DNA from: an uncultured Bacteroides sp.
GTDB taxonomy: Bacteria > Bacteroidota > Bacteroidia > Bacteroidales > Bacteroidaceae
Length of the DNA: 64,000 nucleotides
Assembly (NCBI GenBank): GCA_947646015.1
Contig: CANSEY010000001.1
Location: forward strand, 405,445 to 469,444
Direction of reading: 5' to 3'
A model generated the notes under the pieces. That model saw only the letters and a list, made by a program, of their open reading frames with translations. It did not search any database and was not told the origin of the DNA. Positions 4,644-51,054 of this stretch are shown one piece after another (within the stretch, counting starts at the first letter, position 1; each line of letters starts with the position of its first letter). Made by a program: the position numbers and the translations under genes.

Positions 4644-5246
4644 TATTCAGGAGGCCTCAGAATCCGTTTTTCCGAACAGATGCCGACGGAGTACGAAAAA
4701 AACGCATCCACGCCATTCGGGCAATTATCAGTTTGACAGGTATATTCAGAATTTCTCGCCAAAAGTCAAAGCAATACCTCTTCGTACTATCTCCGACAAC
4801 GTCCGGAAGCAAAAACAGATTCTTTATGCCATCTCGCGGCAGTATCCGCCAAGGGACAAAGCAGACGGAAAGATACCGGAAAATTCTTTAAGGCAAGGCT
4901 CTCCTTTCAAGAAACAAAGCCTCTGTCTACAGGAAGTTAACACTCTATTTGCAGGAAGTTAACATCGTATTCCGATGAAGTTAACAGTTTATCGGCACGA
5001 AGTTAATAATCCGGAGATCTAAATCCCAATAAACCGATAACAGAAGTGACGGATATGCAGTTATCCGGGAGTATTTATCCGGATTCCATTTCCGGATCAC
5101 TGTCTTTCTACACAGAGCTTGTCAGCGAAACCGCATGATACGCTCCATAGAGTCAGTAATCCATCCATTTCACTGACAATCGGTCAGGGGCTTTATCAAA
5201 AAGAAAAACGACTTCACGGGGTTCAAGAGTCAAAAGCTATATTCTG
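4644..5246. other. Intergenic region, no convincing gene
   Basis: About 600 bp separate ansA from the radA promoter. A short open frame starting four bases before the ansA stop (to 4891) has an implausible composition. Another frame across about 4750-4890 has more protein-like composition and might be a decayed fragment, but I recognise no family. The clear structure here is the 22-bp repeat array at 4933-5007. Confidence 0.5.
4933..5007. repeat. Four GAAGTTAAC repeats at exact 22-bp period
   Basis: GAAGTTAAC begins at 4933, 4955 and 4977, and GAAGTTAAT at 4999, so the period is exactly 22 bp, about two helical turns. Each unit contains the palindrome GTTAAC (the last is GTTAAT) followed by A, and the first three also share TAT at unit positions 14-16. 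The remaining unit positions differ, so selection or copying appears focused on the 9-10 nt core. It is too short in period and too variable to be a CRISPR array. Confidence 0.85.
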
Positions 5247-5278
5247 TTTGGCAGAAAAAGACGAAATGCGTAACTTTG
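5247..5278 (+). promoter_or_regulatory. radA promoter
   Basis: TTTG at 5247-5250, a 20-nt spacer and TAACTTTG at 5271-5278 give a textbook Bacteroides promoter (TTTG, 19-21 nt, TAnnTTTG). It lies 22 nt upstream of the radA ATG. Confidence 0.75.
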
Positions 5279-5300
5279 AGACCTATTTATCAAGAGATCA

Positions 5301-6668
5301 ATGGCAAAAGAGAAAACCGTTTATGTATGCAGTAACTGCGGACAGGAATCACCCAAATGGGTGGGCAAATGTCCTTCGTGTGGCGAATGGAATACCTATG
5401 TAGAAGAGATTGTTCGCAAGGAAGTTCCGAATAAACGTCCGGTATCAGGCATCGAATCGCCCAAAGCCAAACCCGTCACCCTGAGCGAGATCGAAGCAGA
5501 TGAAGAACCCCGCATCGACATGCACGACGAGGAGCTGAACCGGGTGCTGGGAGGAGGGCTGGTACCCGGATCGCTGGTACTGATCGGTGGCGAACCCGGC
5601 ATCGGGAAGTCCACACTGGTGCTCCAAACCGTGCTCCACATGCCTGAGCGGAGGATACTCTACATCTCGGGAGAAGAGAGCGCAAGGCAACTGAAACTTC
5701 GTGCCGACCGGTTAACCCGAACTTCGAGCGACTGCCTGATTGTCTGCGAAACATCGTTGGAACAGATCTATGTACATATCAAAAATACACGTCCGGACCT
5801 AGTAATCATCGACTCCATACAGACGATATCGACCGAAAGCATCGAATCGTCACCGGGAAGCATCGCGCAAGTCCGGGAGTGCTCGGCATCCATCCTCCGT
5901 TTTGCCAAAGAGACGCATACCCCGGTGTTGCTGATCGGGCATATCAACAAAGAAGGCAGCATTGCCGGACCGAAGGTTCTAGAGCACATCGTAGACACCG
6001 TACTCCAATTCGAGGGAGACCAGCATTATATGTACCGTATCCTGCGCAGCATCAAGAACCGCTTTGGAAGTACCGCTGAATTGGGCATCTATGAGATGCG
6101 TCAAGACGGGCTTCGCCAAGTCAGCAACCCTTCGGAATTGTTACTGTCGCAGGACCACGAAGGCATGAGCGGGGTAGCCATCGCATCTGCCATCGAAGGG
6201 GTAAGACCCTTCCTGATAGAGACGCAAGCACTTGTCAGCTCTGCGGTTTACGGCAATCCGCAACGTTCGGCAACGGGATTCGATATTCGCCGCATGAACA
6301 TGCTGCTGGCCGTATTAGAGAAGCGTGTCGGATTTAAGCTGGCACAAAAAGATGTCTTTCTAAATATTGCCGGAGGACTGAAGGTTAACGACCCTGCCAT
6401 CGACCTGGCTGTTATCAGTGCCATCCTTTCATCCAATATGGATGCTGCCATCGAACCTGAGGTTTGCATGGCCGGAGAAATCGGATTATCCGGTGAAATC
6501 CGTCCGGTAAACCGGATCGAACAACGTATCGGTGAAGCTGAGAAGCTCGGGTTCAAACGGTTCATCCTACCTAAATACAACATGCAGGGCATCGATACAA
6601 AGAAGCTGAGGATAGAACTGGTGCCGGTAAGAAAGGTGGAAGAAGCATTCCGGACGCTCTTCGGGTGA
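5301..6668 (+). CDS. radA: DNA repair protein RadA (Sms)
   Basis: This 455-residue RecA-like ATPase promotes branch migration during recombinational repair. The N-terminal zinc finger is seen as CSNCGQESPKWVGKCPSCGEW (residues about 10-30). The Walker A motif GGEPGIGKST lies near residue 95, and the RadA-specific KNRFGS motif near residue 250. The C-terminal quarter is the Lon-protease-like domain (GGLKVNDPAIDLAV, GEIGLSGEIRPV). Length matches the family (about 455). The ATG follows a consensus promoter by 22 nt. It is followed by the repeat-flanked GxxExxY gene, which does not look functionally linked. Confidence 0.97.
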   Translation: MAKEKTVYVCSNCGQESPKWVGKCPSCGEWNTYVEEIVRKEVPNKRPVSGIESPKAKPVTLSEIEADEEPRIDMHDEELNRVLGGGLVPGSLVLIGGEPGIGKSTLVLQTVLHMPERRILYISGEESARQLKLRADRLTRTSSDCLIVCETSLEQIYVHIKNTRPDLVIIDSIQTISTESIESSPGSIAQVRECSASILRFAKETHTPVLLIGHINKEGSIAGPKVLEHIVDTVLQFEGDQHYMYRILRSIKNRFGSTAELGIYEMRQDGLRQVSNPSELLLSQDHEGMSGVAIASAIEGVRPFLIETQALVSSAVYGNPQRSATGFDIRRMNMLLAVLEKRVGFKLAQKDVFLNIAGGLKVNDPAIDLAVISAILSSNMDAAIEPEVCMAGEIGLSGEIRPVNRIEQRIGEAEKLGFKRFILPKYNMQGIDTKKLRIELVPVRKVEEAFRTLFG

Positions 6669-6670
6669 GT

Positions 6671-6702
6671 TCACCACAGAGAACACGGAGTCACACAGAG
6701 TT
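6671..6702. repeat. Left inverted repeat of the GxxExxY unit
   Basis: Three ACAGAG-like words sit at 9-10 nt spacing: CACAGAG, CACGGAG and CACAGAG, preceded by TCAC. The mirror copy lies at 7106-7137. The repeat begins 2 nt after the radA stop. Confidence 0.75.
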
Positions 6703-6723
6703 CTTACCATTAAACATTAAAAC

Positions 6724-7095
6724 ATGGAGATAAATGAATTAACAGGACTGATACTAAAGAAAGCTTATGAAGTACATACTGTTTTAGGACCCAGATTACT
6801 AGAAAGTGCTTATGAAGAATGCTTATGCTACGAATTAATCCAATGTGGATTAAACGTAGAAAAACAGAAAGCACTACCCGTAGTATATAAAAACATTAAA
6901 GTAGATGCAGGTTACAGATTGGATATTGTAGTCAACAATGCTGTTATAATAGAGATAAAAGCTGTAGAAGAATTACATCCCGTTCACACCGCACAGCTAA
7001 TAACCTATTTAAAACTATCAGGAATCAAATATGGCCTGCTTATCAATTTTAATGTAAGAAGCCTCAAAGAAGGCATCAGAAGATATATTGTTTAA
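6724..7095 (+). CDS. GxxExxY family protein (PD-(D/E)XK nuclease-like)
   Basis: This 123-residue protein matches the GxxExxY family: an N-terminal LTGLILKKAYEVHTVLG segment, the signature region LLESAYEECL (residues about 25-34), and then YRLDIVVNNAVIIEIKAV, whose Asp and Glu-x-Lys pattern resembles a PD-(D/E)XK nuclease core. The usual first glycine of the signature appears to be Arg here (RLLESAY). Function is unknown for the family. Base composition is richer in A and T than the flanking radA and flavoprotein genes, and the gene sits precisely between inverted ACCACAGAG repeats, which suggests acquisition as a unit rather than operon membership. Confidence 0.85.
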   Translation: MEINELTGLILKKAYEVHTVLGPRLLESAYEECLCYELIQCGLNVEKQKALPVVYKNIKVDAGYRLDIVVNNAVIIEIKAVEELHPVHTAQLITYLKLSGIKYGLLINFNVRSLKEGIRRYIV

Positions 7096-7105
7096 TTAAA
7101 AAAGA

Positions 7106-7137
7106 CTCAGTGAAACTCTGTGTCACTCTGTGGTAAA
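7106..7137. repeat. Right inverted repeat of the GxxExxY unit
   Basis: Read on the minus strand this block is TTTACCACAGAG, then CACAGAG and CACTGAG at 10-nt spacing, mirroring 6671-6702. Its outer end stops 3 nt before the start codon of the next gene, so an insertion here would have replaced that gene's leader. Confidence 0.75.
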
Positions 7138-7139
7138 CC

Positions 7140-8729
7140 ATGATACAAGAATACCAACTCCGCATCCTCCCCGAAATTGCCGCCAGCGAGCAGCAACTCA
7201 AAGCATACCTTTCACAGGAGAAAGGACTGAATCAGCGCGATATTACCGCCCTGCGTACACTGAAACGGAGTATTGATGCCCGCCAACGCACGATCTACGT
7301 CAATCTCAAAGTTCGGGTATACCTGAACGAAATGCCTAAGGACGATGAGTACGAACATACTATATATAATAATGTGGAAGGAAAACCGCAGGTTATTGTG
7401 GTAGGTGCAGGCCCCGGAGGACTGTTTGCCGCATTACGGCTGATAGAACTGGGGCTGCGTCCTGTCGTCGTGGAGCGTGGCAAGGATGTGCGCGAACGTA
7501 AGAAAGACCTGGCACAGATCAGCCGGGAGCATCGGGTAGACCCGGAATCAAACTACAGTTTCGGTGAAGGAGGAGCCGGTGCATACTCGGACGGAAAGCT
7601 GTATACCCGAAGCAAGAAGCGCGGGAATGTGGACAAGATACTCAATGTATTCTGCCAACATGGTGCTTCTACGGCCATTCTGGTAGATGCCCATCCGCAT
7701 ATCGGCACGGACAAGCTGCCACGGGTGATAGAGAATATGCGCAATACGATTATTGAATGTGGAGGCGAAGTACACTTCAAGACACGGATGGATGCATTGA
7801 TCATCGAACAGGGAGAAGTGAAAGGAATAGAGACGAATACGGGCGAAACATTCCTCGGTCCGGTCATCCTGGCAACAGGTCATTCGGCAAGAGATGTATA
7901 TCGCTGGCTGGCCGCCAACAACGTGACTATCGAAGCCAAAGGAATAGCCGTCGGAGTGCGTCTGGAACATCCTGCAGGATTGATAGACCAAATACAATAC
8001 CACAACCGGAGCGGAAGAGGTAAATACCTGCCGGCTGCCGAATACAGTTTCGTCACACAAGTGGACGGCCGCGGAGTATACAGTTTCTGCATGTGTCCCG
8101 GGGGATTCATCGTACCGGCGGCCAGCGGTCCCGAACAGGTGGTAGTCAACGGAATGTCGCCATCCAATCGCGGATCCCGGTGGAGTAACTCGGGAATGGT
8201 GGTGGAGATACAACCGGAAGACATCATCAACGATAAACGGTTAACGGTAAACAATGAAGCAGAAGAAACCTTCCCCGAACTGGCTGTGCTGCACTTCCAG
8301 GAAGAGTTGGAACGCCAGTGTTGGTTGCAAGGAGGCAGACGCCAAACGGCACCCGCACAACGCATGGTGGACTTTACACGCAAGAAACTGAGTTACGACT
8401 TGCCGGAGTCTTCGTACAGCCCCGGATTGATATCCTCCCCCTTGCATTTCTGGATGCCGGAATTCATTGCCGGACGACTGTCACAAGGCTTCCAACAGTT
8501 CGGGCGCAGCAGCCACGGTTTCCTGACCAACGAAGCCGTGATGATAGGGGTAGAAACCCGTACCTCTTCTCCGGTCCGCATCGTACGAGACAAGGATACC
8601 CTGCAACACATCACCTTACGCGGTCTCTTCCCCTGTGGCGAAGGAGCCGGTTATGCGGGCGGCATCGTCTCGGCAGGAATCGATGGAGAACGATGCGCAG
8701 AAGCAGTAGCACAATTTATGAATCCATAG
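7140..8729 (+). CDS. FAD-dependent oxidoreductase, COG2509 type (uncharacterised)
   Basis: This 529-residue flavoprotein has an N-terminal region of about 80 residues (RBD/ferredoxin-like, with VNLKVRVYLNEMP), then the dinucleotide-binding motif VVGAGPGGLFAALRLIELG near residue 85. The stretch NYSFGEGGAGAYSDGKLYTR is characteristic of the COG2509 'FAD-dependent dehydrogenase' family. The C-terminus PCGEGAGYAGGIVSAGIDG is the second FAD contact. The substrate is unknown. The start ATG lies only 3 nt after the GxxExxY right repeat, and the gene is followed after 4 nt by a LuxR-type regulator, so these two probably form a transcription unit. Confidence 0.85.
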   Translation: MIQEYQLRILPEIAASEQQLKAYLSQEKGLNQRDITALRTLKRSIDARQRTIYVNLKVRVYLNEMPKDDEYEHTIYNNVEGKPQVIVVGAGPGGLFAALRLIELGLRPVVVERGKDVRERKKDLAQISREHRVDPESNYSFGEGGAGAYSDGKLYTRSKKRGNVDKILNVFCQHGASTAILVDAHPHIGTDKLPRVIENMRNTIIECGGEVHFKTRMDALIIEQGEVKGIETNTGETFLGPVILATGHSARDVYRWLAANNVTIEAKGIAVGVRLEHPAGLIDQIQYHNRSGRGKYLPAAEYSFVTQVDGRGVYSFCMCPGGFIVPAASGPEQVVVNGMSPSNRGSRWSNSGMVVEIQPEDIINDKRLTVNNEAEETFPELAVLHFQEELERQCWLQGGRRQTAPAQRMVDFTRKKLSYDLPESSYSPGLISSPLHFWMPEFIAGRLSQGFQQFGRSSHGFLTNEAVMIGVETRTSSPVRIVRDKDTLQHITLRGLFPCGEGAGYAGGIVSAGIDGERCAEAVAQFMNP

Positions 8730-8733
8730 ACTT

Positions 8734-9333
8734 ATGATGAATCACCAACCAGAAATAGCTATCGTAGAGGCGAACACCCTCACCAGCCTGGGACTGAAAA
8801 CAATCCTGGAGAGAATGATCCCCATGGCAGTCATCCGCACGTTCCATAGCTTCGGCGAACTGACAGATGACACCCCGGATATGTATGCCCACTACTTCAT
8901 CTCGGCACAGATTTATGTGGAGCACAACGCTTTCTTCCTCCCCCGAAAGCGGAAAACCATCGTGTTGGCGGGAGACAGCCACCAGTTCCAACTCTCCGGC
9001 GTCCCCATACTCAACATCTACCAGGCAGAGGAACAGTTGGTGAAAGACATCCTAAAGCTCCACCAGCATGCACATCATGACGGCTATCCGGTAAAGGACA
9101 TGCCTCCTACCCCGCCGACCACCGGACACGAACTCTCGGCACGCGAAATCGAGGTTCTGGTCCTGATCACCAAAGGACTGATCAACAAAGAGATCGCGGA
9201 CAAACTGAATATCGGCCTGACCACCGTAATCACGCATCGGAAGAACATTACCGAAAAGCTGGGCATCAAATCGGTTTCGGGCCTAACCATCTATGCGGTG
9301 ATGAACGGGTATGTGGAGGCAGACCGCATATAG
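8734..9333 (+). CDS. LuxR-family transcriptional regulator with atypical receiver-like N-terminus
   Basis: The last 65 residues are a clear LuxR/NarL helix-turn-helix (LSAREIEVLVLITKGLINKE, IADKLNIGLTTVITHRKNI). The N-terminal 120 residues begin like a response-regulator receiver (IAIVEANTLTSLGLKTILE), but no phospho-acceptor Asp is seen in the expected strand after the second helix. This suggests a receiver that is not phosphorylated in the usual way. Two ATG codons open the frame; the first starts 4 nt after the flavoprotein stop. The gene precedes a TonB-dependent receptor by 110 nt, so regulation of metal-complex or cofactor uptake is a reasonable guess, not shown. Confidence 0.85.
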   Translation: MMNHQPEIAIVEANTLTSLGLKTILERMIPMAVIRTFHSFGELTDDTPDMYAHYFISAQIYVEHNAFFLPRKRKTIVLAGDSHQFQLSGVPILNIYQAEEQLVKDILKLHQHAHHDGYPVKDMPPTPPTTGHELSAREIEVLVLITKGLINKEIADKLNIGLTTVITHRKNITEKLGIKSVSGLTIYAVMNGYVEADRI

Positions 9334-9443
9334 CGAACTATGTGGTGAATCCATGGTGAAAGCATATATCCTAATAAATGAGGATTGCCGTTTAACATTT
9401 TTTGCTGCATCTTTGCAAACGAATCAATGAAAAGATACAGCAC

Positions 9444-11831: not shown

Positions 11832-11875
11832 TATAATAAAACCAGACATAAGATCGACTAATTTTTAATTTAAAA

Positions 11876-11955
11876 GGTAAGGGGTGTTGGTTTAAAACCA
11901 ATGCCCCTTACCTCTCTGGGTAAACTCCTCTTGGTTTTAAACCAACGGAGAGTAC
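11876..11955. repeat. Nested dyad array between convergent genes
   Basis: Two almost identical 15-nt palindromes, TTGGTTTAAAACCAA (11887-11901) and TTGGTTTTAAACCAA (11931-11945), are 44 bp apart. Each sits inside longer arms: GGTAAGGGG/CCCCTTACC around the first (11876-11912), CTCC/GGAG around the second. A further dyad TTACC/GGTAA is centred halfway between them. Dyad centres fall at about 11894, 11915.5 and 11938, a period near 22 bp. The array lies between convergent genes and may also serve as a bidirectional terminator. Confidence 0.8.
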
Positions 11956-11984
11956 CTCCCCAACATTCATACCACATTCCCGAT

Positions 11985-14782: not shown

Positions 14783-15696
14783 CGGATATCTTCAATATTA
14801 TAAGGAGTCTCCTGATAGACGAAATAGTTCAGCCAATTGGAGAACAACAGGTTGGCATGTCCGCGCCAACGCACCAGCGGTCCTTTGTCCGGATCATCAT
14901 TCACGTAATAGTTACGGGGAATCTCGATGGGAAGCCCTTTCGAAACATCCCGGCGATATTCCGTATCCAGTGTCAGTGGAGAGTACTCGGAGTGCCCGGT
15001 AACAAAAAACTCACGCCCGCCACGGGCTACCACCATATATACCCCCGAATCATCCGACTCGGAAAGTAATGTCAATTCCGGTACTTTCAGTATATCTTCC
15101 TTTCGCACTTCCGTATGCCGGCTATGGGGCACATAGAATTCATCATCGAAGCCACGGAAGATGGGATGCAGCGGAAGCAGCGTGCGATGCTTGAAAATGC
15201 CGAACATTTTCTTATCCAAAGCATACTTGGGGATACCGTAATGATGATACAGTCCCGCCTGTGCTGCCCAACAAATATAGAGTGTGGAGGTGACATGGGT
15301 ACGTGCCCAGTCGAATATCTCCGTTATTTCATCCCAATAGTTCACTTCCTCAAACTCCATTTGCTCTACCGGTGCACCGGTGATAATCATACCGTCATAC
15401 CTGTCTTCTCTCATCTTGTCGAAGTCGGTATAAAATGTTTTCATGTGCTCTATCGGTGTATTCTTCGAGGTGTGGCTTTTAATCTTCATAAAAGAAATTT
15501 CCACCTGAAGCGGAGTGTTTGAGAGTAAACGCACCAAGTCTGTTTCTGTCGTAATCTTCAACGGCATCAGGTTGAGGATAACAATTCGTAGCGGACGGAT
15601 GTCTTGTTGTGTTGCGCGGGAGTTATCTATCACAAAGATATTCTCCTCTTTTAATAGTTCTATCGCAGGAAGCTTATCGGGTAAATTTAAAGGCAT
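14779..15696 (-). CDS. metA: Homoserine O-acyltransferase MetA (predicted acetyl-CoA type)
   Basis: This 305-residue enzyme activates homoserine for methionine synthesis. The catalytic Cys142 lies in [14 protein letters not shown], and the His/Glu of the triad in the [11 protein letters not shown] stretch near 235. Length and start agree with the family (about 300-310). Residue 111, in GAPVEQMEF, is Glu. In characterised MetA proteins Glu111 goes with acetyl-CoA and Gly111 (E. coli) with succinyl-CoA, so the usual label 'homoserine O-succinyltransferase' is probably wrong here. It is first of a three-gene operon with 4-nt overlaps. A -7-like element (TATTTTTG on the minus strand) is at 15724-15731. 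No SAM riboswitch is apparent in the short leader. Confidence 0.95.
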
Positions 15697-16026: not shown

Positions 16027-16047
16027 TACAATCCCCAACAAAAAAGA

Positions 16048-24066: not shown

Positions 24067-24143
24067 GGCGGGATAGCTCAGCTGGTTAGAGCGCATGATT
24101 CATAATCATGAGGTCCCCGGTTCAATCCCGGGTCCCGCTACCA
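24067..24143 (+). tRNA. tRNA with CAU anticodon (Met, or Ile2 if lysidine-modified)
   Basis: A full cloverleaf can be drawn: acceptor GGCGGGA/TCCCGCT (first pair G-U), D-arm GCTCAGCTGGTTAGAGC, anticodon arm CATGA-TTCATAA-TCATG, T-arm CCGGG-TTCAATC-CCGGG, discriminator A and encoded CCA at 24141-24143. The paired first acceptor position and the lack of three G-C pairs in the anticodon stem exclude an initiator tRNA. Elongator Met versus Ile(CAU) cannot be decided by eye. Confidence 0.93.
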
Positions 24144-24153: not shown

Positions 24154-24275
24154 AGCGTTTAGGAGGCTTCCACTCTTGGGCGCTTTTTTATTGCCACATA
24201 CTCTCCTATAGTTAGATTCTTAACACAGTTATCAACATAGTTATTAACAGATATACACCAAAGTTATTAACAGGT
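24154..24275 (+). repeat. Block copy 1: terminator-like stem plus TTATYAACA boxes
   Basis: An AGCGTTTA...CGCT stem followed by TTTTTTATTGCC acts as the tRNA terminator (24154-24195). It is followed by nine-mers at 24217 (TTCTTAACA), 24229 (TTATCAACA), 24241 and 24264 (TTATTAACA), spaced 12, 12 and 23. A further TTATCAACA is at 24342. A diverged copy of the whole block occurs at 25545-25680. Confidence 0.75.
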
Positions 24276-24716
24276 TAACAGACTACAATTCAATAAATTA
24301 AGTATTTTACCTCCATATCAATCAACTAGCTTTTCAAAAGGTTATCAACAAGCTGGAAAATACTCAATTTTTCCATTTCAACATTCAAAAGCATTACAAA
24401 CTCCGTTGCTCACCTTATGAAATAAAAAAGTGACTAACAGATCCCAAAGAATATATTGTATATCAAAACAAAACATTTATTTTTGCATAAATCATGATGC
24501 TACAGATACTAAAAATAGAGACACATGACCAAGCTAAAAAGTGTAACAGCTTAAAATAATAAAAAGAAAAGTACTTTCAGAGAGCCATTCTTTGCGTATC
24601 AGCAGCCGTCTGATGTAACATAGTGAACTAATCTTGAGAGTTATTTATGATATTAACCTGAAACCCAGTATAGATGTAAATATAGTATTAGGGATATAAT
24701 TTAAAGAATAACAAAA
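24276..24716. other. AT-rich intergenic / possible long leader of lipocalin-like gene
   Basis: No gene is evident. TATTTTTG at 24478-24485 matches the -7 consensus; if it is the promoter of the next gene the 5' leader is about 225 nt. A 21-codon ORF (about 24494-24559) begins almost at the inferred start site. An ATCA/TGAT dyad lies near 24597-24616. Confidence 0.4.
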
Positions 24717-25373
24717 ATGGAGATATTTAGAAATTTAACCGTTGTCCTTGCCATAACTACCTTGGTGGCTTGTAATGATGTTACGATAGAAGGCTCTTGG
24801 GTGGAATCGGTTCCCGGAATATCTAATTTAAAACAAGGATTCACGCTTGAAGCAAACGGAAGTGCTTCTTCCATCAATATGGCCACTTTGAAATATGAGA
24901 AATGGAAGAAAGAAGGAAACTTATTACTCCTTTCCGGTATAAGCATCGGCAACCACCAAAGTATATCCTTTACAGATACACTAACAGTAGAGCAATTGAC
25001 TCAGGACAGTTTGATTCTCAAAAAAGGCGAGTTGGTTTTGAGGTATTCCAAGACGAATGAAATACCAGACGAAGAAGCTATACCGACACCGGACACTCCT
25101 ACCCAGAAACTTTTGTCCGTAAAAGGTAAATTGATCATCGGACATGAAACACGTTCTTTCACTTCAGAAGGGGATTCCACTGATTATTGGATTGTTGATA
25201 AAACAGGAGAACTCCTACAAAAGTATGATGGTGAAACAAAAGGAATCAAAAATGGAACACCTGTATATGTGGAATTAGAAGTTATTGATATGGGTAAATC
25301 AGACGAAGGCTTTGCCGCCGATTATGCCGGTGTTTATCATGTCATGAAAATCAATAAAATAACTGTAAAATAA
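24717..25373 (+). CDS. Lipocalin-like lipoprotein
   Basis: This 218-residue protein has a lipoprotein signal with lipobox TTLVAC (Cys about 19), so it is likely exported and lipid-anchored. Residues about 24-115 look like a lipocalin-like beta-barrel start (IEGSWVESVPG, GFTLEANGSA, DSLILKKG). After a Pro/Thr-rich linker (about 118-130) a second beta-rich domain follows (KLLSVKGKLIIGHETRSF to the end), recalling the two-domain layout of NlpE-like copper-sensing lipoproteins, although no CxxC metal motif is visible. It is a single gene bracketed by the two copies of the TTATYAACA block. Function unknown. Confidence 0.75.
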   Translation: MEIFRNLTVVLAITTLVACNDVTIEGSWVESVPGISNLKQGFTLEANGSASSINMATLKYEKWKKEGNLLLLSGISIGNHQSISFTDTLTVEQLTQDSLILKKGELVLRYSKTNEIPDEEAIPTPDTPTQKLLSVKGKLIIGHETRSFTSEGDSTDYWIVDKTGELLQKYDGETKGIKNGTPVYVELEVIDMGKSDEGFAADYAGVYHVMKINKITVK

Positions 25374-25544: not shown

Positions 25545-25680
25545 AGCGTTTAAGAAATTTAGACTCTTAAACGCTGTTTTATTGCCTAACATTTCCAGAC
25601 ACTTAATTCCCCCACGCAGTTGTCAACAAAGTTATTAACATAGTTATCAACAGATATCAACCGAAGTTATCAACAGGATA
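25545..25680 (+). repeat. Block copy 2: stem plus TTATYAACA boxes
   Basis: The first 42 nt align without gaps to 24154-24195: AGCGTTTA, ACTCTT, CGCT and TTTTATTGCC are shared, and here the stem AGCGTTTA/TAAACGCT is perfect. Nine-mers follow at 25620 (TTGTCAACA), 25632 (TTATTAACA), 25644 and 25667 (TTATCAACA), with the same 12-12-23 spacing as copy 1. No tRNA precedes this copy. Confidence 0.75.
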
Positions 25681-30232: not shown

Positions 30233-30291
30233 ATCCCATACACTCACAAACTGAAACATATCGTATGTTTCGTCTTATGAGTATATGGGAT
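30233..30291. repeat. 59-nt nested dyad between PUL genes
   Basis: A perfect inner palindrome GAAACATA-TCG-TATGTTTC (30253-30271) is enclosed by arms ATCCCATACACTCA (30233-30246) and TGAGTATATGGGAT (30278-30291) that match at 13 of 14 positions. All share one centre at 30262, and the unpaired 6-nt gaps are equal on both sides. Confidence 0.85.
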
Positions 30292-32733: not shown

Positions 32734-32797
32734 AGAACGGACTTCGGCAATTTAGAAATCATAAGACGTCTCCATGACACATTGCGAAATCCGTTCT
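32734..32797. repeat. Nested dyad in the SusD-enzyme gap
   Basis: Arms AGAACGGACTTCGGCAAT and ATTGCGAAATCCGTTCT pair with two mismatches or bulges and surround a central palindrome AGACGTCT (32764-32771). The structure lies in the 123-nt gap between the SusD and hydrolase genes. Confidence 0.7.
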
Positions 32798-42253: not shown

Positions 42254-42348
42254 CTTTTCTTCAATTTTTATACTGCATAACCCGTAACAGTATCGCTACT
42301 GCCACGGGTTGACTAACCACTTTTTAAATTCCTAAGTTATATCTGATT

Positions 42349-43098: not shown

Positions 43099-43107
43099 CT
43101 TTACTTT

Positions 43108-43683
43108 CTATCTGTTTTTTAACTCTTCCAGAGCTATATTCAACTTTAATACATTTACTTTCTCGGTTCCGAATATCCCCAGCAACGGCTTCTCTACAGC
43201 TTTATCTACGACTCTTCTCACCTCTTCCACATCCATGCCACGTGCCTGCGCCACTCTTTTCACTTGTACATAAGCACTCTGTGGAGTGATGTCCGGATCC
43301 AGTCCCGAGGCACTGGCTGTCACCATCTCGGCAGGTACATCCTTGCGTGCCAGATACGGATGATGAATAAGGAAAGTATCGATGCGTGCCTCCACCTCTG
43401 CCAGATATTCAGGATTGGTCGGCCCTTTATTGCTACCTGCCGAACTGGTTGCATCATAGCCATCACCGGCACATGAGGGGCGTCCCCAAAAATATTTTTC
43501 TTCCGTAAAAGTCTGTCCTACATTGGCAGCCCCTACCACTTTTCCGTTTAAGGTAACTACTTCTGCATTTCCCCGGTTAGGACCGGCTACCTGTGCAAAC
43601 AGCCACAGCACGAGGATATAAAATACAGAGAAGAATACACAAAAGACGAGAGTTATCTTGATAGATTTTAATAATGTTTTCAT
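43108..43683 (-). CDS. kdpC: Potassium-transporting ATPase subunit C
   Basis: This 191-residue protein has one N-terminal helix (ITLVFCVFFSVFYILVLWLFAQ) and the KdpC periplasmic region: FTEEKYFWGRPSC, SSAGSNKGPTNPEYL, VTASASGLDPDITPQSAYVQVKRVA and the end LLGIFGTEKVNVLKLNIALEEL. It assembles with KdpF, KdpA and KdpB. It starts 11 nt after the kdpB stop. Confidence 0.97.
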   Translation of the reverse strand: MKTLLKSIKITLVFCVFFSVFYILVLWLFAQVAGPNRGNAEVVTLNGKVVGAANVGQTFTEEKYFWGRPSCAGDGYDATSSAGSNKGPTNPEYLAEVEARIDTFLIHHPYLARKDVPAEMVTASASGLDPDITPQSAYVQVKRVAQARGMDVEEVRRVVDKAVEKPLLGIFGTEKVNVLKLNIALEELKNR

Positions 43684-43694
43684 TGCTTGAATAT

Positions 43695-45743: not shown

Positions 45744-45764
45744 AACTTTATTATCCTGCTATTC

Positions 45765-47471
45765 TTATAAACTTAAATGTTCGGCGATTGTACTCAACGC
45801 ATGTACAGGGAAGAAAGACAAAGCTGCAACAATGAAAATGACGGCAAAAGTCATTACTGCAAAAGTCACAGTATCCGTTTTCAAGGTACCGGCACTCTCG
45901 GGAATAAACTTTTTTTGAGCCAATAGTCCTGCAATGGCTACCTGTCCGACAATCGGAATAAACCGACTCAGGATAAGTACAATGCCACATGTCCAGTTCC
46001 AGAAATATGTATTATCACCCAGTCCCTCGAAACCCGAACCATTGTTGGCAGCCGATGAGGTGTATTCGTAAAGCTGCTCGCTGAGACCATGAAATCCGAG
46101 ATTGTTCAGCCATCCGCCCTCACTCTCCACAAAATCGGGGTGATGTGTATAGACGTAACTTGAGATGGCAGTAAATACCAGAATTACAAACGGATGCAAC
46201 AAAGCGACGAAGGTTGCTATTTTCATTTCCCGGGCTTCTACCTTCTTACCTAGAAATTCCGGCGTACGCCCCACCATCAGTCCGCTGATAAAAACGGCCA
46301 TGATAATAAAGGTATAATAGTTCAGCCATCCTACACCAACACCGCCAAACCAAGTATTGATCTGCATATTCAGCATCTCGACCATTCCACTGAGCGGCAT
46401 AGTCGAATCGTGCATCCCATTGACCGAACCATTGGAAGTAACCGTTGTGGTGACACTCCATAGGGCTGTGGCTCCGGCTCCAAGCCGTACCTCTTTTCCT
46501 TCCATCGCACCATGATCCTGGGCAATTCCCATTTCGCTGATACGCGGATTACCTCCCATCTCCTGACCGACATTGATAAAGACACCTGCCAGATAAGCAA
46601 ACAGCATCACTCCAAAGATACTATATCCCAACTTCCTGCGATTGGTATAAAAGCCCAAGGCCAATACCATCGCCATCGGCATGATCAGGATCGACCAACA
46701 CTCTACCATATTAGTCAGATAGGTAGGATTCTCCAACGGATGCGAAGAATTGACACCAAAATAACCACCACCATTGGTTCCTAATTGTTTAATGGGAACA
46801 ATCGCAGCCGTAGGTCCCTGGGATACCATCTGCTCCTGTCCTTCGAGTGTAGTCAGTTGCATCCGACCGTCAAAGCCCATCGGTGTTCCCTGCAAAATCA
46901 GAATGAAACCTACCACCAATGAAAGCGGTAACAGAATACGTGTGCAACTGATCACCAGAAAGTGCCAAAAGTTACCAATCGTTTGAGTGCTCTTGGCAGC
47001 CATACTTTTCATAACTCCGGCCATGGCAGCCATTCCTGTGGCAGCAGTAATAAACTGGAACAACATGATGACAAACAATTGAGTGAAATAAGTCAGACCA
47101 CTCTCACCGCTGTAGTGTTGCAAATTACAGTTTACCATAAAACTGATGCAAGTATTAAATGCTTGGTCAGGTGTTTGAGCCCCGTTTCCGTCGGGATTGA
47201 GCGGAAGCCAACCTTGCGATACCAGTAACACCATTCCCCATACAAACCAAAATGCATTCAGGATCAGTAACGCCTTGAGGAACTGTTTCCAGTTCATCTC
47301 CTCCTGCGGATTAATACCACATATCTTATAAATCACTCGCTCTATAGGCGCCATGAAGTCCGACCAAGTCTTCTCTCCCTTATAAACCCGGGCTATGTAA
47401 CGTCCCAACGGATAAGCTAATACCACCATCAGGACAATCTGCACCGCCACTCCTAAAATTTCTGTATTCAT
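45765..47471 (-). CDS. kdpA: Potassium-transporting ATPase subunit A
   Basis: This 568-residue membrane protein is the K+ channel-like subunit related to Trk/Ktr transporters. It has about ten hydrophobic segments and family motifs YKICGINPQEEMNWKQF, SFMVNCNLQHYSGE, IVPIKQLGTNGGGYFGVNSSHP (selectivity-filter region) and YEYTSSAANNGSGFEGL. It starts 15 nt after the kdpF stop. Confidence 0.97.
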   Translation of the reverse strand: MNTEILGVAVQIVLMVVLAYPLGRYIARVYKGEKTWSDFMAPIERVIYKICGINPQEEMNWKQFLKALLILNAFWFVWGMVLLVSQGWLPLNPDGNGAQTPDQAFNTCISFMVNCNLQHYSGESGLTYFTQLFVIMLFQFITAATGMAAMAGVMKSMAAKSTQTIGNFWHFLVISCTRILLPLSLVVGFILILQGTPMGFDGRMQLTTLEGQEQMVSQGPTAAIVPIKQLGTNGGGYFGVNSSHPLENPTYLTNMVECWSILIMPMAMVLALGFYTNRRKLGYSIFGVMLFAYLAGVFINVGQEMGGNPRISEMGIAQDHGAMEGKEVRLGAGATALWSVTTTVTSNGSVNGMHDSTMPLSGMVEMLNMQINTWFGGVGVGWLNYYTFIIMAVFISGLMVGRTPEFLGKKVEAREMKIATFVALLHPFVILVFTAISSYVYTHHPDFVESEGGWLNNLGFHGLSEQLYEYTSSAANNGSGFEGLGDNTYFWNWTCGIVLILSRFIPIVGQVAIAGLLAQKKFIPESAGTLKTDTVTFAVMTFAVIFIVAALSFFPVHALSTIAEHLSL

Positions 47472-47486
47472 TGCTTTATTTTCAAA

Positions 47487-47567
47487 TTAAAACTTCTCTG
47501 GACGAATGAGCACATACGTCAAATAACTGAAAAGTATGATACCTACTACAAATAGTGTTGTGTACAT
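47487..47567 (-). CDS. kdpF: KdpF small subunit (26 aa)
   Basis: This ORF encodes 26 residues: a single hydrophobic helix (TTLFVVGIILFSYLTYVLI) followed by the RPEKF end that is typical of KdpF. KdpF is a lipid-like stabiliser of the KdpFABC complex. It sits directly before kdpA, with GAGAGGAGA about 10 nt upstream of its ATG as a good ribosome-binding site. Confidence 0.9.
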   Translation of the reverse strand: MYTTLFVVGIILFSYLTYVLIRPEKF

Positions 47568-47584
47568 AAAATAAATTCTCCTCT

Positions 47585-47680
47585 CTAAATTGTTTCAAAC
47601 CAGTCAACGCATTTCCAAAATAGCCAGAAGCAGGCAAACCCGCTCAACAGGCAGAAAATAAATGAAACTGTTATTCCCAT
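47585..47680 (-). CDS. Unrecognised 31-residue membrane peptide ahead of kdpF
   Basis: From ATG at 47680 to TAG at 47585-47587 the minus strand encodes 31 residues that form one strongly hydrophobic, aromatic- and Cys-rich helix (segments VSFIFCLLSGF and CFWLFWKCVDWF, charges only near the end). It begins about 47 nt after the inferred sigma-54 start site and ends 17 nt before kdpF, in the position of the first operon gene. I know no named family. Position, hydrophobicity and clean boundaries argue that it is translated, perhaps as an extra Kdp-associated microprotein or a leader. Confidence 0.6.
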   Translation of the reverse strand: MGITVSFIFCLLSGFACFWLFWKCVDWFETI

Positions 47681-47737
47681 GTTTTTTACCTTTTAATTAA
47701 AATGTTTATACTTATGTTTTTTACCTGTAACTCTTCA

Positions 47738-47753
47738 TGCCAAATGCGTGCCA
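47738..47753 (-). promoter_or_regulatory. Sigma-54 (-24/-12) promoter of the kdp operon
   Basis: On the minus strand this reads TGGCACGCATTTGGCA. Against the consensus TGGCAC-N5-TTGCA only the second T of TTGC differs, and the GG/GC spacing is exact. Transcription would start near 47727, just before the 31-aa ORF. The gene immediately upstream encodes a sigma-54 activator, which supports the assignment. Confidence 0.75.
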
Positions 47754-47803
47754 GAAACAGTCAAGGATAAGATAAGTCACTATCATACAGAGATATAAAA
47801 CAA

Positions 47804-47838
47804 ATAGGGTATCTTCGCCTTGTACGAAGATACCCTAT
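47804..47838 (-). terminator. Terminator of the sigma-54 activator gene
   Basis: A perfect 14-bp stem (47804-47817 with 47825-47838, 7-nt loop) is followed on the minus strand by a T-rich run. It lies about 75 nt after the activator stop and about 50 nt before the kdp -24/-12 promoter, insulating the two units. It could also overlap activator binding sites. Confidence 0.8.
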
Positions 47839-47911
47839 CATTATGAAAAGGTTCGTTTTATTTTGAAAAGGAAAGAAGCATAAAACTCAGGCAACGATAT
47901 TCACGCGCGAC

Positions 47912-49255
47912 TCAGAGCTTATATTCTTCTATTTTTCGGTATAAAGTAGTCAATCCGATTTTCAGTAAACGTGCTGCTTCTGTTTTATTGCCTTTAGTAT
48001 ACTCCAATACCCTCGCTATATGCCTGCGTTCCATAGCCGAAAGTTCAAAACTGCCCGGCATTCCTTCGTCGGATTTCTCGTAGTGGCTGTTCTGTATTTC
48101 CAACGGAAGATCGTCTACATCCAGACGGTCGCCCTCACAAACGATCAGGCTGCGTTCGATTACATTACGTAATTCGCGGATATTTCCTTTCCAGGGTTGT
48201 TGGCATAGGGCCTCCAGATAAGCGGGAGCAATCCTATTGACCGGATGTGAAAGTTTTTCGGAGAAGGAACGGACAAACGATTCAGCCAGTATCTTAATAT
48301 CTCCCGTACGTTCACGCAAAGGCGGAAGATGTACCTGAAACACGGAGAGCCGATAGAACAGATCTTCACGAAAACGTCCCGCAGCTATCTCGGCAGGTAA
48401 ATTACGGTTTGTAGCAGCAATGATACGCACATCAATGTGGGTCGGCTTCGTGTCACCTATCTTGATGTATTCGCCGGTTTCGAGGATACGCAACAGCTTG
48501 GCTTGCAACTCAAAAGCCATTTCACCGATTTCATCCAAAAAGATTGTTCCGTTATTGGCTTCTTCAAAAAGTCCCTTCTTATCTTTCAACGCACCGGTAA
48601 AGGAACCCGCCTTATGCCCGAACATCTCGCTCTCCAGCAACTCTTTACTAAACGAAGAGCAGTTAACTGCCACAAAGTTTTGCCGGGCACGCTTACTACT
48701 ATAATGTATGGACTGGGCAAACACCTCTTTTCCGGTTCCCGTCTCACCCGTCAGCAATACAGGTACATCAGTCACCGATACCTTACGGGCTAACGAAACC
48801 GCTTCTTTCAATGCTTTCGATTCACCGAGTATGGAATCGAACGAATACATCAGTCCCATCTTCTTCTCCAGTTTGTCCAGGCGGATATTCATCCGTGCCT
48901 TTTCTACAGCGCGACTGATCAGGGGAATAATTTTATTGTTATCATCCCCTTTCGTTATGTAATCGAAAGCTCCGTTCTTGATTGCCTGCACACCATCAGG
49001 TATGTTTCCATGTGCCGTCAGCAGAATAATCTCTACTCCCGGAGATTTTTTCTTCATCTCCGTCACCAGATCCACCCCGTTTCCATCCGGCAGAAATACA
49101 TCACACAAAGCCACGTCGGGCATTTGAAGTTCCAATTGTCTGAGTGCTGTCTTACAATCGCCGGCCTGACACACTTCGTAACCTTCAAGTTCCATCATAC
49201 GTGCCAGCAGACCACGAATCTGCACTTCGTCATCAATAATCAGAATTTTACTCAT
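47912..49255 (-). CDS. Sigma-54-dependent response regulator (NtrC type), probably controlling kdp
   Basis: This 447-residue activator has a receiver domain (residues 1-120, acceptor Asp52 in ALCDVFLPDGNG), an AAA+ domain with GETGTGKEVF, the sigma-54-contacting loop GSFTGALKDKKG and LFLDEIGEM, and a C-terminal Fis-type helix-turn-helix (NKTEAARLLKIGLTTLYRKIEEY). It is encoded just upstream of a -24/-12 promoter that heads the kdp operon, while the operon's last gene is a histidine kinase. In most bacteria this position belongs to KdpE, an OmpR-type regulator; none is present in the window. Functional pairing is inferred from gene order. Confidence 0.93.
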   Translation of the reverse strand: MSKILIIDDEVQIRGLLARMMELEGYEVCQAGDCKTALRQLELQMPDVALCDVFLPDGNGVDLVTEMKKKSPGVEIILLTAHGNIPDGVQAIKNGAFDYITKGDDNNKIIPLISRAVEKARMNIRLDKLEKKMGLMYSFDSILGESKALKEAVSLARKVSVTDVPVLLTGETGTGKEVFAQSIHYSSKRARQNFVAVNCSSFSKELLESEMFGHKAGSFTGALKDKKGLFEEANNGTIFLDEIGEMAFELQAKLLRILETGEYIKIGDTKPTHIDVRIIAATNRNLPAEIAAGRFREDLFYRLSVFQVHLPPLRERTGDIKILAESFVRSFSEKLSHPVNRIAPAYLEALCQQPWKGNIRELRNVIERSLIVCEGDRLDVDDLPLEIQNSHYEKSDEGMPGSFELSAMERRHIARVLEYTKGNKTEAARLLKIGLTTLYRKIEEYKL

Positions 49256-49559
49256 ATCTGATAAGTTAAAATGTGAATGGTAAAAAACAGGGTGTGCAAA
49301 TATAATGGTTTTCTGCTACAACGCAAATGATCGGACTGCTGAAAAATAAAATTCCGAATGGCATGTCTTTTGAACTTTTATTCATGACTCAGCGCCCGAT
49401 AATCTTCCCTACCCCTTTTCTGATCGCTCAGAAGCGGTTTTTAACGGGTAAGGAATCATCTGAACGGGCAAATGCCACCTTTTCATTTTGATAAAACAAA
49501 CTAAAATGAAAAGGAGACAGATAAGAAAAAAGAATCGTATAACTAAAAAAAATAGAGAA
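49256..49559. other. Divergent intergenic region between activator and aspartokinase-like gene
   Basis: Contains a perfect TTCTGA/TCAGAA dyad (49418-49433). A weak -24/-12-like sequence, TGGCATGTCTTTTGAA at 49359-49374, lacks the C of the -12 GC. No standard TAnnTTTG element is clear. An in-frame extension of the next gene to 49488 is Lys/Arg-only in composition and probably noncoding. Confidence 0.4.
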
Positions 49560-50924
49560 ATGAAAATCTACAAATTCGGTAAGATTCCCACAGGCTCAGT
49601 ACAGGAAATGAAAGGAATGCTCCGCCTGATTGACAACAGTATCCCCCAAATAATCGTTCTGTCCGCCACTACAGAGACTACGGAACGTCTGGTCGGAATA
49701 GCTGCCCATCTTTTCAACAGAGATACAGAACAGGCGCATGACGAGATAAGCAGGCTTGAATTCAGGTTTATCGATTTCGCCAACGAACTATTCAATGACG
49801 AATCGATCAAGCAACAGGCGGTCGATTCCATCATCGATCGTTTCCGGACTCTATGGAACTTTACCCGCCAACGTTTTACATCTGTCGACGAGAAAGACAT
49901 ACTGGCGCAGGGAGAATTTATCAGCAGTATGCTAGTCAGCCTCTATCTGAAAGAGCAGGGAATCAACAACCGACTACTCAACAGCCTCGACTTCATGCGA
50001 CTGGCTCCGGAAGAAGAACCGGACATGGAATACATCGGTACAAAGCTACACTTGCTCTTGGCAGAGCATAAGTCGACCAATGTATTTCTTACTCAAGGAC
50101 ATCTTTGCCGGAATGCTTACAACGAAACCTGTTACTTGAAACAAGGCGGAGATGATGTTTCAGCCACACTGATCGGAGCCGCTCTTCAGGCACAAGAAGT
50201 ATGTCTGTGGACAGACAGCAAAGAGTTGCACAGTTGTGACCCGCGCTTTGTGAAGCATCCGGCAATGGTGAAGCAGCTCAGTTTCGACGAAGCCGAGCAA
50301 CTGGCCTATTGCGGCTGGACGGGATTCAACCCTCACTGCATCCTGCCCGCAAGAGAAAACAACATACCGATACGTTTGCTATGTTCGATGGAGCCTGCAG
50401 AAGGAGGAACTTTGATTTCAAATTCACAAAGCGGAGAAAACATAAAGGCCATTACCGCCAGAGACAATATTTATTACATTAAATTCCAATCGAACCGGAC
50501 GTTACGCCCCTATCTGTTCATCAGCAAAATATTCGATACTTTTGCCAAATACCACACTTCCCTGTGCCTGTTCGCCTCGTCCGGTTCTGATGTATCTGTT
50601 GCCATCAACGACAAAGAGCGTTTATCGCATATACTCCACGAACTCTCACGATATGCAGTCACGGTGGTAAAAGACCACATGTGCATCCTTTCGGCCATAG
50701 GTAACATGCAGTGGCAATGCGCCGGATTTGAAGCCCGAATCATAAATGCTTTGGCCACCATCCCGATCCGAATGATCTCTTATGGCAGTAATAACAACAA
50801 TGTTTCACTTGTCATCAGGGCAGAAGATAAGAGAGAAGCATTGCAACGACTGAACGACACGCTGTTCGCTCCCTGCCATGCAAATCCTTTTCAGATACAT
50901 GTTCCGACATTAAAACACAGTTAG
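49560..50924 (+). CDS. Aspartokinase-like protein with degenerate catalytic motifs
   Basis: The ATG at 49560 (MKIYKFGKIPTGSVQEMK) aligns with the usual aspartokinase start. This gives 454 residues, the normal length of a monofunctional enzyme with two ACT-like C-terminal modules (about 310-454). The order of motifs is kept but their residues are not: KFGKIPTGS replaces KFGGTSVGS, QGGDDVSATLIG replaces GRGGSDTTA, and TDSKELHSCDPRFV replaces TDVDG-type TADPR. LSFDEAEQLAYCGW follows the family. It may be catalytically weak or dead and act as a regulatory relative of aspartokinase. It stands alone after the divergent sigma-54 activator. Confidence 0.75.
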   Translation: MKIYKFGKIPTGSVQEMKGMLRLIDNSIPQIIVLSATTETTERLVGIAAHLFNRDTEQAHDEISRLEFRFIDFANELFNDESIKQQAVDSIIDRFRTLWNFTRQRFTSVDEKDILAQGEFISSMLVSLYLKEQGINNRLLNSLDFMRLAPEEEPDMEYIGTKLHLLLAEHKSTNVFLTQGHLCRNAYNETCYLKQGGDDVSATLIGAALQAQEVCLWTDSKELHSCDPRFVKHPAMVKQLSFDEAEQLAYCGWTGFNPHCILPARENNIPIRLLCSMEPAEGGTLISNSQSGENIKAITARDNIYYIKFQSNRTLRPYLFISKIFDTFAKYHTSLCLFASSGSDVSVAINDKERLSHILHELSRYAVTVVKDHMCILSAIGNMQWQCAGFEARIINALATIPIRMISYGSNNNNVSLVIRAEDKREALQRLNDTLFAPCHANPFQIHVPTLKHS

Positions 50925-50969
50925 CAAAACACTACGGGCCGGCAGTCTTTCCCTTTAATGGGAGATTGA

Positions 50970-51054
50970 ACAACATGGGGATGTTTTGGTGCAAAACATC
51001 CCCATGTTGTATATAAGAACATCCCCATGTTATCACACACAACATCCCCATGTT
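50970..51054. repeat. Four AACATCCCCATGTT dyads at exact 23-bp period
   Basis: AACATGGGGATGTT at 50972 and AACATCCCCATGTT at 50995, 51018 and 51041 are spaced exactly 23 bp. The first is the inverted form, so copies 1 and 2 make a perfect 19-bp stem with a 3-nt loop (50970-51010). The hairpin follows the aspartokinase-like gene by 45 nt and can act as its terminator, but it lacks a long T-run. Between this array and the next gene (51055-51242) nothing else is recognised. Confidence 0.9.

What the first reader, a model, noticed from the sequence alone, without database searches (positions are those of the whole stretch)
4933..51054. Several unrelated intergenic sites share a 22-23 bp dyad spacing
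Arrays at 4933-5007 (22 bp, GTTAAC), 11876-11955 (about 22 bp, TTGGTTTWAAACCAA), 30233-30291 (arms 22.5 bp from centre) and 50970-51054 (23 bp, AACATSSSSATGTT) have different core sequences but the same period; 32734-32797 is similar with less exact spacing. A shared period with different sequences suggests a common generating or binding mechanism, such as a protein that reads symmetry and spacing, or an enzyme that copies short palindromes. I know of no published description.
Basis: partly seen in the sequence, partly recalled or inferred. Interest (0 to 1): 0.75.

Follow-up and report, generated by a model that had tools for sequence, protein, structure and literature searches.

The report
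Four-palindrome 22-bp intergenic elements in Bacteroides
Between genes, Bacteroides chromosomes carry many short DNA elements built of four palindrome-like units 22 or 23 bases apart; the sequences differ from species to species but the spacing does not, which points to an unidentified DNA-reading system.

Summary
Three of the five named sites hold up and belong to something wider. Sites 4933-5007 (22 bp), 11876-11955 (22-bp register) and 50970-51054 (23 bp) are elements of four phased dyads; 30233-30291 and 32734-32797 are single inverted repeats. A model-free lag count and a four-dyad scan both peak at 22 and 23 bp in the window's genome. The 22-bp peak recurs in all seven other genomes of the genus sampled, mostly with other cores; 14 genomes of other families gave none. 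The best family, AACATSSSSATGTT (99 arrays), nearly always spans four units, shows no pairing across the core, has species-wide shifts in allowed centres, and keeps site and unit order between species while spacers are nearly randomised. Copies are dispersed; some share flank, most do not. No RAYT transposase in 12 of 13 genomes; no hit in viral contigs. Best reading: dispersed chromosomal elements, each family read by its own dimeric DNA-binding protein, four dimers in register. The protein, the way of spreading and the function remain unknown, and a selfish REP-like reading is nearly as likely. Seven literature searches aimed at such repeats listed no description.

The parts
50972..51054 (.). 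Family A element: four AACATSSSSATGTT dyads at 50972, 50995, 51018, 51041 (centres GGGG, CCCC, CCCC, CCCC), 23-bp steps, 9-bp variable spacers
   Evidence: at this place the relative G014 (94% identical in the downstream stretch) shows only two decayed units 23 bp apart (read by eye)
4933..5008 (.). Family D element: four GAAGTTAAYA units at 4933, 4955, 4977, 4999, 22-bp steps, 12-bp variable spacers
   Evidence: similar element in G014 (position 14996 of the joined stretch)
11869..11957 (.). Family E element: dyads centred near 11871 (TTTAAA), 11893 (TTGGTTTAAAACCAA), 11916 (TTACC..GGTAA) and 11938 (TTGGTTTTAAACCAA), 22-bp register; also reads as two hairpins between two convergent ORFs
   Evidence: element at the matching place in G014
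30233..30291 (.).
   Evidence: four-dyad score at noise level
32734..32797 (.).
   Evidence: four-dyad score at noise level

Best explanation
The three real sites belong to a class of chromosomal, intergenic elements of about 88-92 bp: four dyads in strict register, 22 bp apart (23 in a minority of families), each dyad made of two sequence-specific half-sites of about 9-10 bp. Shown: the geometry, the usual number four, the intergenic location, several unrelated core families in one genome, different cores in different species, and, for family A, lack of stem covariation and retention of cores and unit order at matching sites while spacers are scrambled. Inferred: each family is bound by its own DNA-binding protein as four dimers side by side (about two helical turns apart), the proteins being one family that keeps quaternary geometry while its specificity changes fast; the elements multiply within a species, and some are then kept for the complex they hold, most likely as an architectural or transcription-blocking site behind genes. 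Not known: the protein, how copies arise, and the benefit.
For: Period: model-free; four-dyad model, periods 16-32: 11 elements at 22 and 6 at 23 above the best score of the first shuffle; 0-2 at each other period. Whole-sequence scan of about 2.15 Mb, periods 18-27, 80 bits or more: 37 of 40 hits at 22 (31) or 23 (6), none of these 37 mostly within an ORF. Replication: 3-5 elements at 22 bp in each of 7 other genomes of the genus, shuffles 0 at 22. Number four: 72 of 99 family A arrays span 4 units, 20 span 3, 6 span 2, 1 spans 5; 199 of 211 steps are 23 bp, 11 are 46, 1 is 22; of 37 sampled elements 28 have no further unit with mean identity 0.57 or more next to the four (selected with a 4-unit model). 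Sequence-specific reading: no excess complementarity at any of nine outward positions in 349 units; A two bases outside the outermost half-sites in 134 of 136 ends, where no neighbour unit exists. Trans-acting factor: centre CCGG is 0 of 74 units in two genomes (CAMTOV, DKPL) but 25 of 70 in B. salyersiae and 20 of 35 in B. nordii; GGCC is 0 of 351. Constraint: 11 pairs of matching sites, core identity 556/602, spacer 142/288, unit type kept 31/43; random array pairs 0.84, 0.44, 0.33. With both flanks matching (7 pairs): 356/378, 91/180, 21/27. Not promoter-like: 22 convergent, 31 tandem, 5 divergent of 58.
Against: No binding protein was found; neighbouring genes show no theme. Lrp/AsnC paralogs number 0-4 per genome (own 1), too few for one per family. 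Core identity between matching sites (92%) is only moderately above that of random arrays (84%), so the constraint argument rests on place and unit order, and 4 of the 11 pairs keep only one or two of four unit types. 9 of 37 sampled elements do have a fifth unit-like neighbour. A selfish element with a sequence-specific mobiliser predicts much of the same, and one site is decayed and others replaced in a close relative. 28 of 37 elements fold better than shuffles as RNA (z below -3 on the better strand), as palindromic arrays must, so RNA roles are not excluded for families with long hairpins such as E.
Confidence: 0.45

Rival explanations
1. REP-like selfish repeats: short palindromic elements spread by an unrecognised transposase that needs four phased sites; function for the host is absent or incidental, and the core is kept because the mobiliser reads it.
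For: Species-specific burst: AAACAMTAKTGTTT pairs at 22 bp, 37 matches at 35 places in G124 and 0 in three other genomes of its genus, with two 8-bp spacers found 7 times each. Similar paralogous arrays: mean flank identity 0.60 in the first 10 bp, then 0.37-0.41 (other pairs 0.31-0.37); a few copies in one genome share about 40 bp of flank on one side, and family B copies share longer flanks, i.e. copying. Location behind genes as stated for REPs in the abstract of PMC3733652.
Against: No Y1_Tnp in 12 of 13 genomes. Retention of place and unit order across species with scrambled spacers is not expected of dead copies. No clean empty site was found: the comparison gave decayed or wholly different intergenic DNA.
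Confidence: 0.33
2. RNA-level elements: transcribed hairpins (bidirectional terminators or 3' stabilisers), 22 nt being the arm length.
For: Family E (window 11875-11957) and others form long hairpins; 28 of 37 elements have z below -3 on the better strand; family A is biased to gene 3' ends.
Against: Family A shows no pairing beyond the core in 349 units. Some elements fold weakly (G014 D-type element z -1.9, G124 20141 z -1.4). A strict 22/23-bp step and the number four are not needed for hairpins. Divergent placements occur (6 of 37).
Confidence: 0.12
3. Ordinary operators of transcription factors, each family being one regulon.
For: Palindromic half-sites with species-specific drift look like transcription factor sites.
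Against: Many lie between convergent ORFs (22 of 58; 12 of 37), where no promoter is obviously served; up to 19 family A arrays in one genome with no gene theme in 20 tested neighbours of elements of several families; no single-dyad copy in the 80 family A loci.
Confidence: 0.07
4. Chance or a compositional artefact of AT-rich intergenic DNA.
For: Two of the five sites in the finding are noise.
Against: Shuffled controls give almost nothing at the thresholds used; 13 of 13 strict family A sites in the own genome fall in four phased arrays, reversed-pattern control 0.
Confidence: 0.02

Closest known systems
REP/BIME repeats and REPINs with RAYT (Y1) transposases (PMC3733652: abstract and passages seen)
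   Same: Small dispersed extragenic palindromic repeats, some families species-specific, several types in one organism, mostly behind genes or between convergent genes
   Different: Usually four units at a 22/23-bp step regardless of sequence; no covarying stem in family A; no Y1 transposase in 12 of 13 genomes; GTAG/CGTC tags not tested here
Operator arrays of octameric Lrp/AsnC-type regulators that wrap DNA (BarR, PMC10201364: passages seen)
   Same: Semipalindromic 15-bp sites, 3 shown and 4-5 predicted, regularly spaced and described as two helical turns apart, each thought to be contacted by a dimer of an octamer
   Different: Spacers given as 15-17 bp, not a 22-bp step; sites in one promoter region; too few Lrp paralogs here for one per family
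BrickBuilt elements of Porphyromonas gingivalis with 23-nt tandem repeats (PMC4596501: passages seen)
   Same: 23-nt period in a Bacteroidales relative (kinship recalled), 19 dispersed copies
   Different: 1 to 22.8 imperfect direct repeats with leader and tail regions in an inverted-repeat element; here usually four units with variable spacers and mostly no shared flanks
Cooperative phage repressor operators (lambda/434 type; recalled, no call)
   Same: Dyads about 22-24 bp apart bound by interacting dimers
   Different: Two or three sites at phage promoters; here four, chromosome-wide; three patterns gave 0 hits in viral contigs

Membership tests
REP / RAYT repeats | RAYT (Y1_Tnp, PF01797) in the genome | tested here: not met
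   0 in own genome (74.7% complete); 1 of 12 others, G047 only
REP / RAYT repeats | Extragenic, mainly behind or between convergent genes | tested here: met
   Family A 22 convergent, 31 tandem, 5 divergent of 58; all families sampled 12, 19, 6 of 37 (a weak bias); background ORF pairs with gaps of 100 bp or more 127, 333, 166 of 626
REP / RAYT repeats | Stem-loop with paired arms | tested here: not met
   Family A: no excess pairing outside the core in 349 units; not tested across copies for other families, some of which form long hairpins
REP / RAYT repeats | GTAG or CGTC tag at one end | not tested
   No call
Lrp/AsnC octamer operator | An Lrp paralog for each family | tested here: not met
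   1-4 PF01037 matches per genome in 60 of 61 genomes, 0 in one, 1 in the own genome
Lrp/AsnC octamer operator | Several regularly spaced dyads | tested here: met
Lrp/AsnC octamer operator | Protein bound in vivo or in vitro | not testable with these tools
BrickBuilt-type MITE | Conserved leader and tail around the array | tested here: inconclusive
   Family A: mean flank identity near background beyond 10 bp, but some copies in genome JAGOOC share about 40 bp on one side; family B alignments reach 246-414 bp, element included
Phage operator | Present in phages | tested here: not met
   0 matches in viral contigs for three patterns
Rfam RNA family | Match to a curated family at the sites | tested here: not met
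   Only a tRNA elsewhere in the window

The most novel reading that the evidence does not exclude
Bacteroidaceae carry an undescribed system in which one protein family of fixed quaternary geometry (four dimers, two turns apart) and fast-changing DNA specificity reads, and perhaps disseminates, four-dyad elements. Each genome holds several specificities and, by extrapolation from 17 in 849 kb, about a hundred elements; after spreading they are kept at gene ends as protein-bound sites. Geometry, not sequence, is what is inherited across the family.
Probability: 0.4. Interest if true: 0.9.

Novelty: categorically new. Interest (0 to 1): 0.75.

Why it matters
If right, a large class of non-coding elements in a dominant genus of gut bacteria has gone undescribed, and it comes with a testable prediction: a DNA-binding protein family whose geometry is constant while its specificity turns over between species. 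It would give a handle on chromosome organisation or transcript boundaries in Bacteroides, and a natural series for studying how protein and site co-evolve. Even if the elements are selfish, they would be a REP-like class without the known transposase and with a fixed fourfold build.

Tried and rejected
Lrp/AsnC regulators as the readers, one per family: rejected on paralog number. RAYT-driven REPs: Y1_Tnp missing in 12 of 13 genomes. Phage origin: no viral contig hit for three patterns. A gene that recurs next to family A arrays: clustering of proteins within 2.5 kb in loci L048-L136 gave families in at most 5 loci, mostly near-orthologous neighbours or common families such as TonB receptors; Pfam on 20 neighbours of sampled elements gave a mixture. 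One neighbour is a HU-HIG protein 81 bp from a family A array; not followed up.

Chromosome macrodomain sites: family A clusters in G060 (7 of 10 in 0.56 Mb, P 0.0018), the G021 family lies in one part of the chromosome (13 of 13 within 3 Mb, P 0.0008), the G124 family has one long gap (P 0.02) (windows chosen after seeing the positions). By skew and rRNA orientation the G060 cluster is near the inferred origin, the G021 family lies roughly opposite the stretch that must hold the origin, and the G124 gap overlaps the inferred terminus. No common rule, so I read this as local history.

Clean empty sites: own genome against G014 gave 13 comparable loci (of 19 called in own stretches): 10 keep an element of 70 bits or more that looks like the same family, one is decayed (window 50968), one has other intergenic DNA without an element (C1:292637), one has a different-core score (C2:372153); no junction could be read. 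The lag-10 excess is about half a different repeat (8 of 16 hits are CACAGAGT/CTCTGTG pairs or their one-letter variant). Promoter motif PM2 of B. thetaiotaomicron (PMC7366714, passages) has -10/-30 boxes and is something else. Literature: seven searches aimed at such repeats listed nothing that describes them; only the listed top rows, abstracts and a few passages were seen, the library is open-access only, and two more searches had other aims.

Rows dropped or chosen: one search used 80 of 98 pattern-matched stretches; its 58 orientation counts leave out 22 arrays with a neighbour missing at a locus edge, and some arrays are orthologs of each other. One search kept only arrays with steps that are multiples of 23 and two or more units (99 arrays). 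One search scored 11 pairs of equal length picked by me from the sets printed; members of unequal length were left out; 4 of the 11 had only one matching flank. One search printed elements at 68 bits and counted at 66; one search used 80. The 37 include orthologs (own and G014), a cluster of three in G124 and one perfect 22-bp tandem repeat there. One fetched piece of 422 bases was left out of the other-family control, which therefore held 14 genomes. ORFs were called by a simple script, not annotated genes.
Full report
What was checked. Five sites were named. Three are arrays: 4933-5008 (four GAAGTTAAYA units, 22-bp steps), 11869-11957 (dyads in 22-bp register, TTGGTTTWAAACCAA at 11887 and 11931 being two steps apart) and 50972-51054 (four AACATSSSSATGTT units, 23-bp steps). 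A four-dyad score gives 78.1, 68.6 and 105.0 bits at their period, against at most 57.0 in one shuffled window; the other two sites score 36-44 at 22 and 23 and are single inverted repeats.

Is the period real? In 849 kb of the own genome (400 kb of contig C1, contig C2, the window; 86 kb intergenic by a simple ORF script), exact 8-mers recurring at a given lag were counted without any symmetry model. Lag 22: 28 against 3.6 expected; lag 23: 19 against 3.2; 44: 9 against 2.3; 46: 7 against 2.2. Most other lags from 9 to 60 are near expectation; lag 10 stands out too (16 against 3.8, about half of it a CACAGAGT-type repeat), and lags 16, 20, 30, 32 and 40 show smaller excesses. A half-site model (four dyads, eight half-sites, periods 16-32) gives 11 elements at 22 and 6 at 23 above the best score of the first shuffle; each other period gives 0-2. 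At the lower threshold periods 16, 20, 21 and 24 also show excesses (8, 4, 4 and 5 elements); several of those printed (periods 21 and 24) lie in GC-rich or coding-like stretches.

One geometry, many sequences. The own genome holds unrelated cores: AACATSSSSATGTT (23), GGGCYCATRRGCCC (22), ACGGTGCACCGT (22), GAAGTTAAC (22), GGTTTAAACC (22), AAGTAAGC/CTTTTCGG (22), GTATAC (23). In 100-200 kb each of seven other genomes of the genus the 22-bp peak recurs (3-5 elements each at 66 bits; 27 at 22, 2 at 23, 6 at the other 15 periods together; shuffles 0 at 22 and 23), for example TAGTGACGSTA in G021, TTGTACAAAA in G026, CTTTGCAAAG in G017; the close relative G014 shares cores with the own genome. 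In 203 kb of 14 genomes from other families of the order there were 0 at 22 or 23, and 3 at other periods. Within the family, genus g51 (G124) has 7 in 100 kb, one of them a perfect tandem repeat; g50 (G123) has 2, one below its shuffle maximum; g52 (G125) 1; g58 (G168) 0. A scan of whole sequences (about 2.15 Mb, coding included) with periods 18-27 and 80 bits gave 40 elements: 31 at 22, 6 at 23, one each at 18, 19, 21; none of the 37 lies mostly in an ORF.

Anatomy of family A. All 13 strict sites in the own genome lie in four phased arrays, control 0. The pattern of two adjacent units occurs in 10 of 119 genomes, the own included, all in one genus, and in 98 stretches of named genome contigs, all labelled Bacteroides: B. 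nordii, salyersiae, fragilis, oleiciplenus, cutis, ihuae, neonati, stercorirosoris, rodentium and MAGs. In 80 of these loci steps are 23 in 199 of 211, 46 in 11 (one unit decayed) and 22 in 1, and no solitary unit was seen. In 99 arrays the span is four units in 72, three in 20, two in 6, five in 1. Centres are CCGG, CCCC or GGGG, rarely others, and GGCC 0 of 351: two half-sites, AACAYCC or AACATGG, never two of the second. Spacers are free except T at position 2 and A at position 8; positions outside the core do not pair beyond shuffles in 349 units, and three positions pair somewhat less. The A two bases outside is present in 134 of 136 outermost ends, so it belongs to the half-site and not to the tandem build. 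This is the signature of protein-DNA reading by dimers rather than of a stem.

Signs of a trans-acting reader. Genomes CAMTOV and DKPL use no CCGG unit (0 of 74) while B. salyersiae uses 25 of 70 and B. nordii 20 of 35: the allowed centre shifts across all copies of a genome together. One search listed 63 locus pairs with matching flanks (duplicates of one genome and shared repeats among them); one search printed sets of them. In 11 pairs that I chose, core identity is 556/602, spacer 142/288, ungapped flank (30 + 30 bp) 294/660, and unit type is kept 31/43; random array pairs give 0.84 core, 0.44 spacer, 0.33 unit type. For the 7 pairs with both flanks matching: 356/378, 91/180, 21/27; for the 4 with one flank: 200/224, 51/108, 10/16. 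So spacers are nearly randomised while the order of units is kept: own C1:154.66k and B. fragilis S82 (L119) both read CCGG CCGG GGGG GGGG between matching flanks. Four of the 11 pairs keep only one or two of four types, which speaks against strong constraint everywhere.

Spread. Among paralogous arrays with similar spacers, mean flank identity is 0.60 in the first 10 bp and 0.37-0.41 beyond (other pairs 0.31-0.37), so as a rule the array is the element. Some copies share more: L057, L062 and L133 of one genome share about 40 bp on one side (by eye), and three family B copies align over 246-414 bp. In G124 one core occurs at 35 places and in none of three other genomes of its genus, with two spacer sequences found 7 times each: a recent burst. 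Between own genome and G014, 13 loci could be compared: 10 keep an element, one is decayed, one has lost it with the whole intergenic sequence, one shows another core; no clean empty site was seen.

Place. Family A: 22 convergent, 31 tandem, 5 divergent neighbours of 58; all families in the sampled stretches 12, 19, 6 of 37, against 127, 333, 166 of 626 background pairs. This resembles REPs as described in PMC3733652 and disfavours promoters, strongly for family A and weakly for the rest. Neighbouring genes have no theme: in the window an asparaginase and a RadA/Lon-like ATPase (4933), a TonB-dependent receptor and an ORF without Pfam match (11876), an amino acid kinase with ACT domain and a redox enzyme (50972).

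Mechanism. I commit to protein reading by four dimers in register (0.45), with REP-like selfish spread by an unknown mobiliser as the main rival (0.33); the two may both be true. The geometry resembles operators of octameric DNA-wrapping regulators: BarR sites are described as 4 to 5, regularly spaced and two helical turns apart, with spacers of 15-17 bp (PMC10201364, passages); but Lrp paralogs are too few here. RAYTs are missing in 12 of 13 genomes. RNA folding is better than shuffles in 28 of 37 (z below -3), which follows from palindromy and does not decide. Viral contigs hold none of three patterns.

Novelty. Seven searches of an open-access library aimed at such repeats listed no description. 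The label 'categorically new' rests on structure: a fourfold 22/23-bp build shared by unrelated sequences, with two tested features of REP membership not met. If a mobiliser is found it may come to be seen as a new variant of REP-like repeats.

Noticed in passing
window 24225-24350 and 25618-25680: Two clusters of TTATYNACA (DnaA-box-like; name recalled) motifs, 7 of the 8 plus-strand matches in the window, with the same 12 + 23 bp spacing, on either side of a lipocalin-like ORF (24717-25373); a tRNA lies at 24067-24140. Third-position skew does not change sign in the window, so this is not clearly the origin.
   Followed up: partly
own genome C1:278.2-278.6k, C2:71.2-71.5k, C2:278.5-278.8k: Family B elements align over 246-414 bp, element included, with ATCTTCCACC repeats in the flank, as if part of a larger mobile element.
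   Followed up: partly
own genome C2:107.98-108.49k and C2:247.36-247.87k: A 508-bp repeat, 94% identical, with inverted ends of about 23-28 bp, next to two family B elements.
   Followed up: no
own genome, e.g. C1:127668-127745, window 7115: CACAGAGTnnCACAGAGT / ACTCTGTGttACTCTGTG pairs at a 10-bp lag, sometimes as facing hairpin arms; about half of the lag-10 excess.
   Followed up: no
G060, G021, G124 chromosomes: Element families are not spread evenly round the chromosome, but with no common rule with respect to inferred origin or terminus.
   Followed up: partly
G124 C1:589.4-589.8k (L254): Perfect 22-bp tandem repeat GTATAATACTTTGGTAGGCTAA between two four-dyad elements of another core.
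   Followed up: no
L057, L062, L133 (genome JAGOOC): Three family A copies share about 40 bp of flank on one side, so the copied piece was larger than the array there.
   Followed up: no
own genome C2:201.4-202.1k: A HU-HIG DNA-binding protein gene lies 81 bp from a family A array.
   Followed up: no
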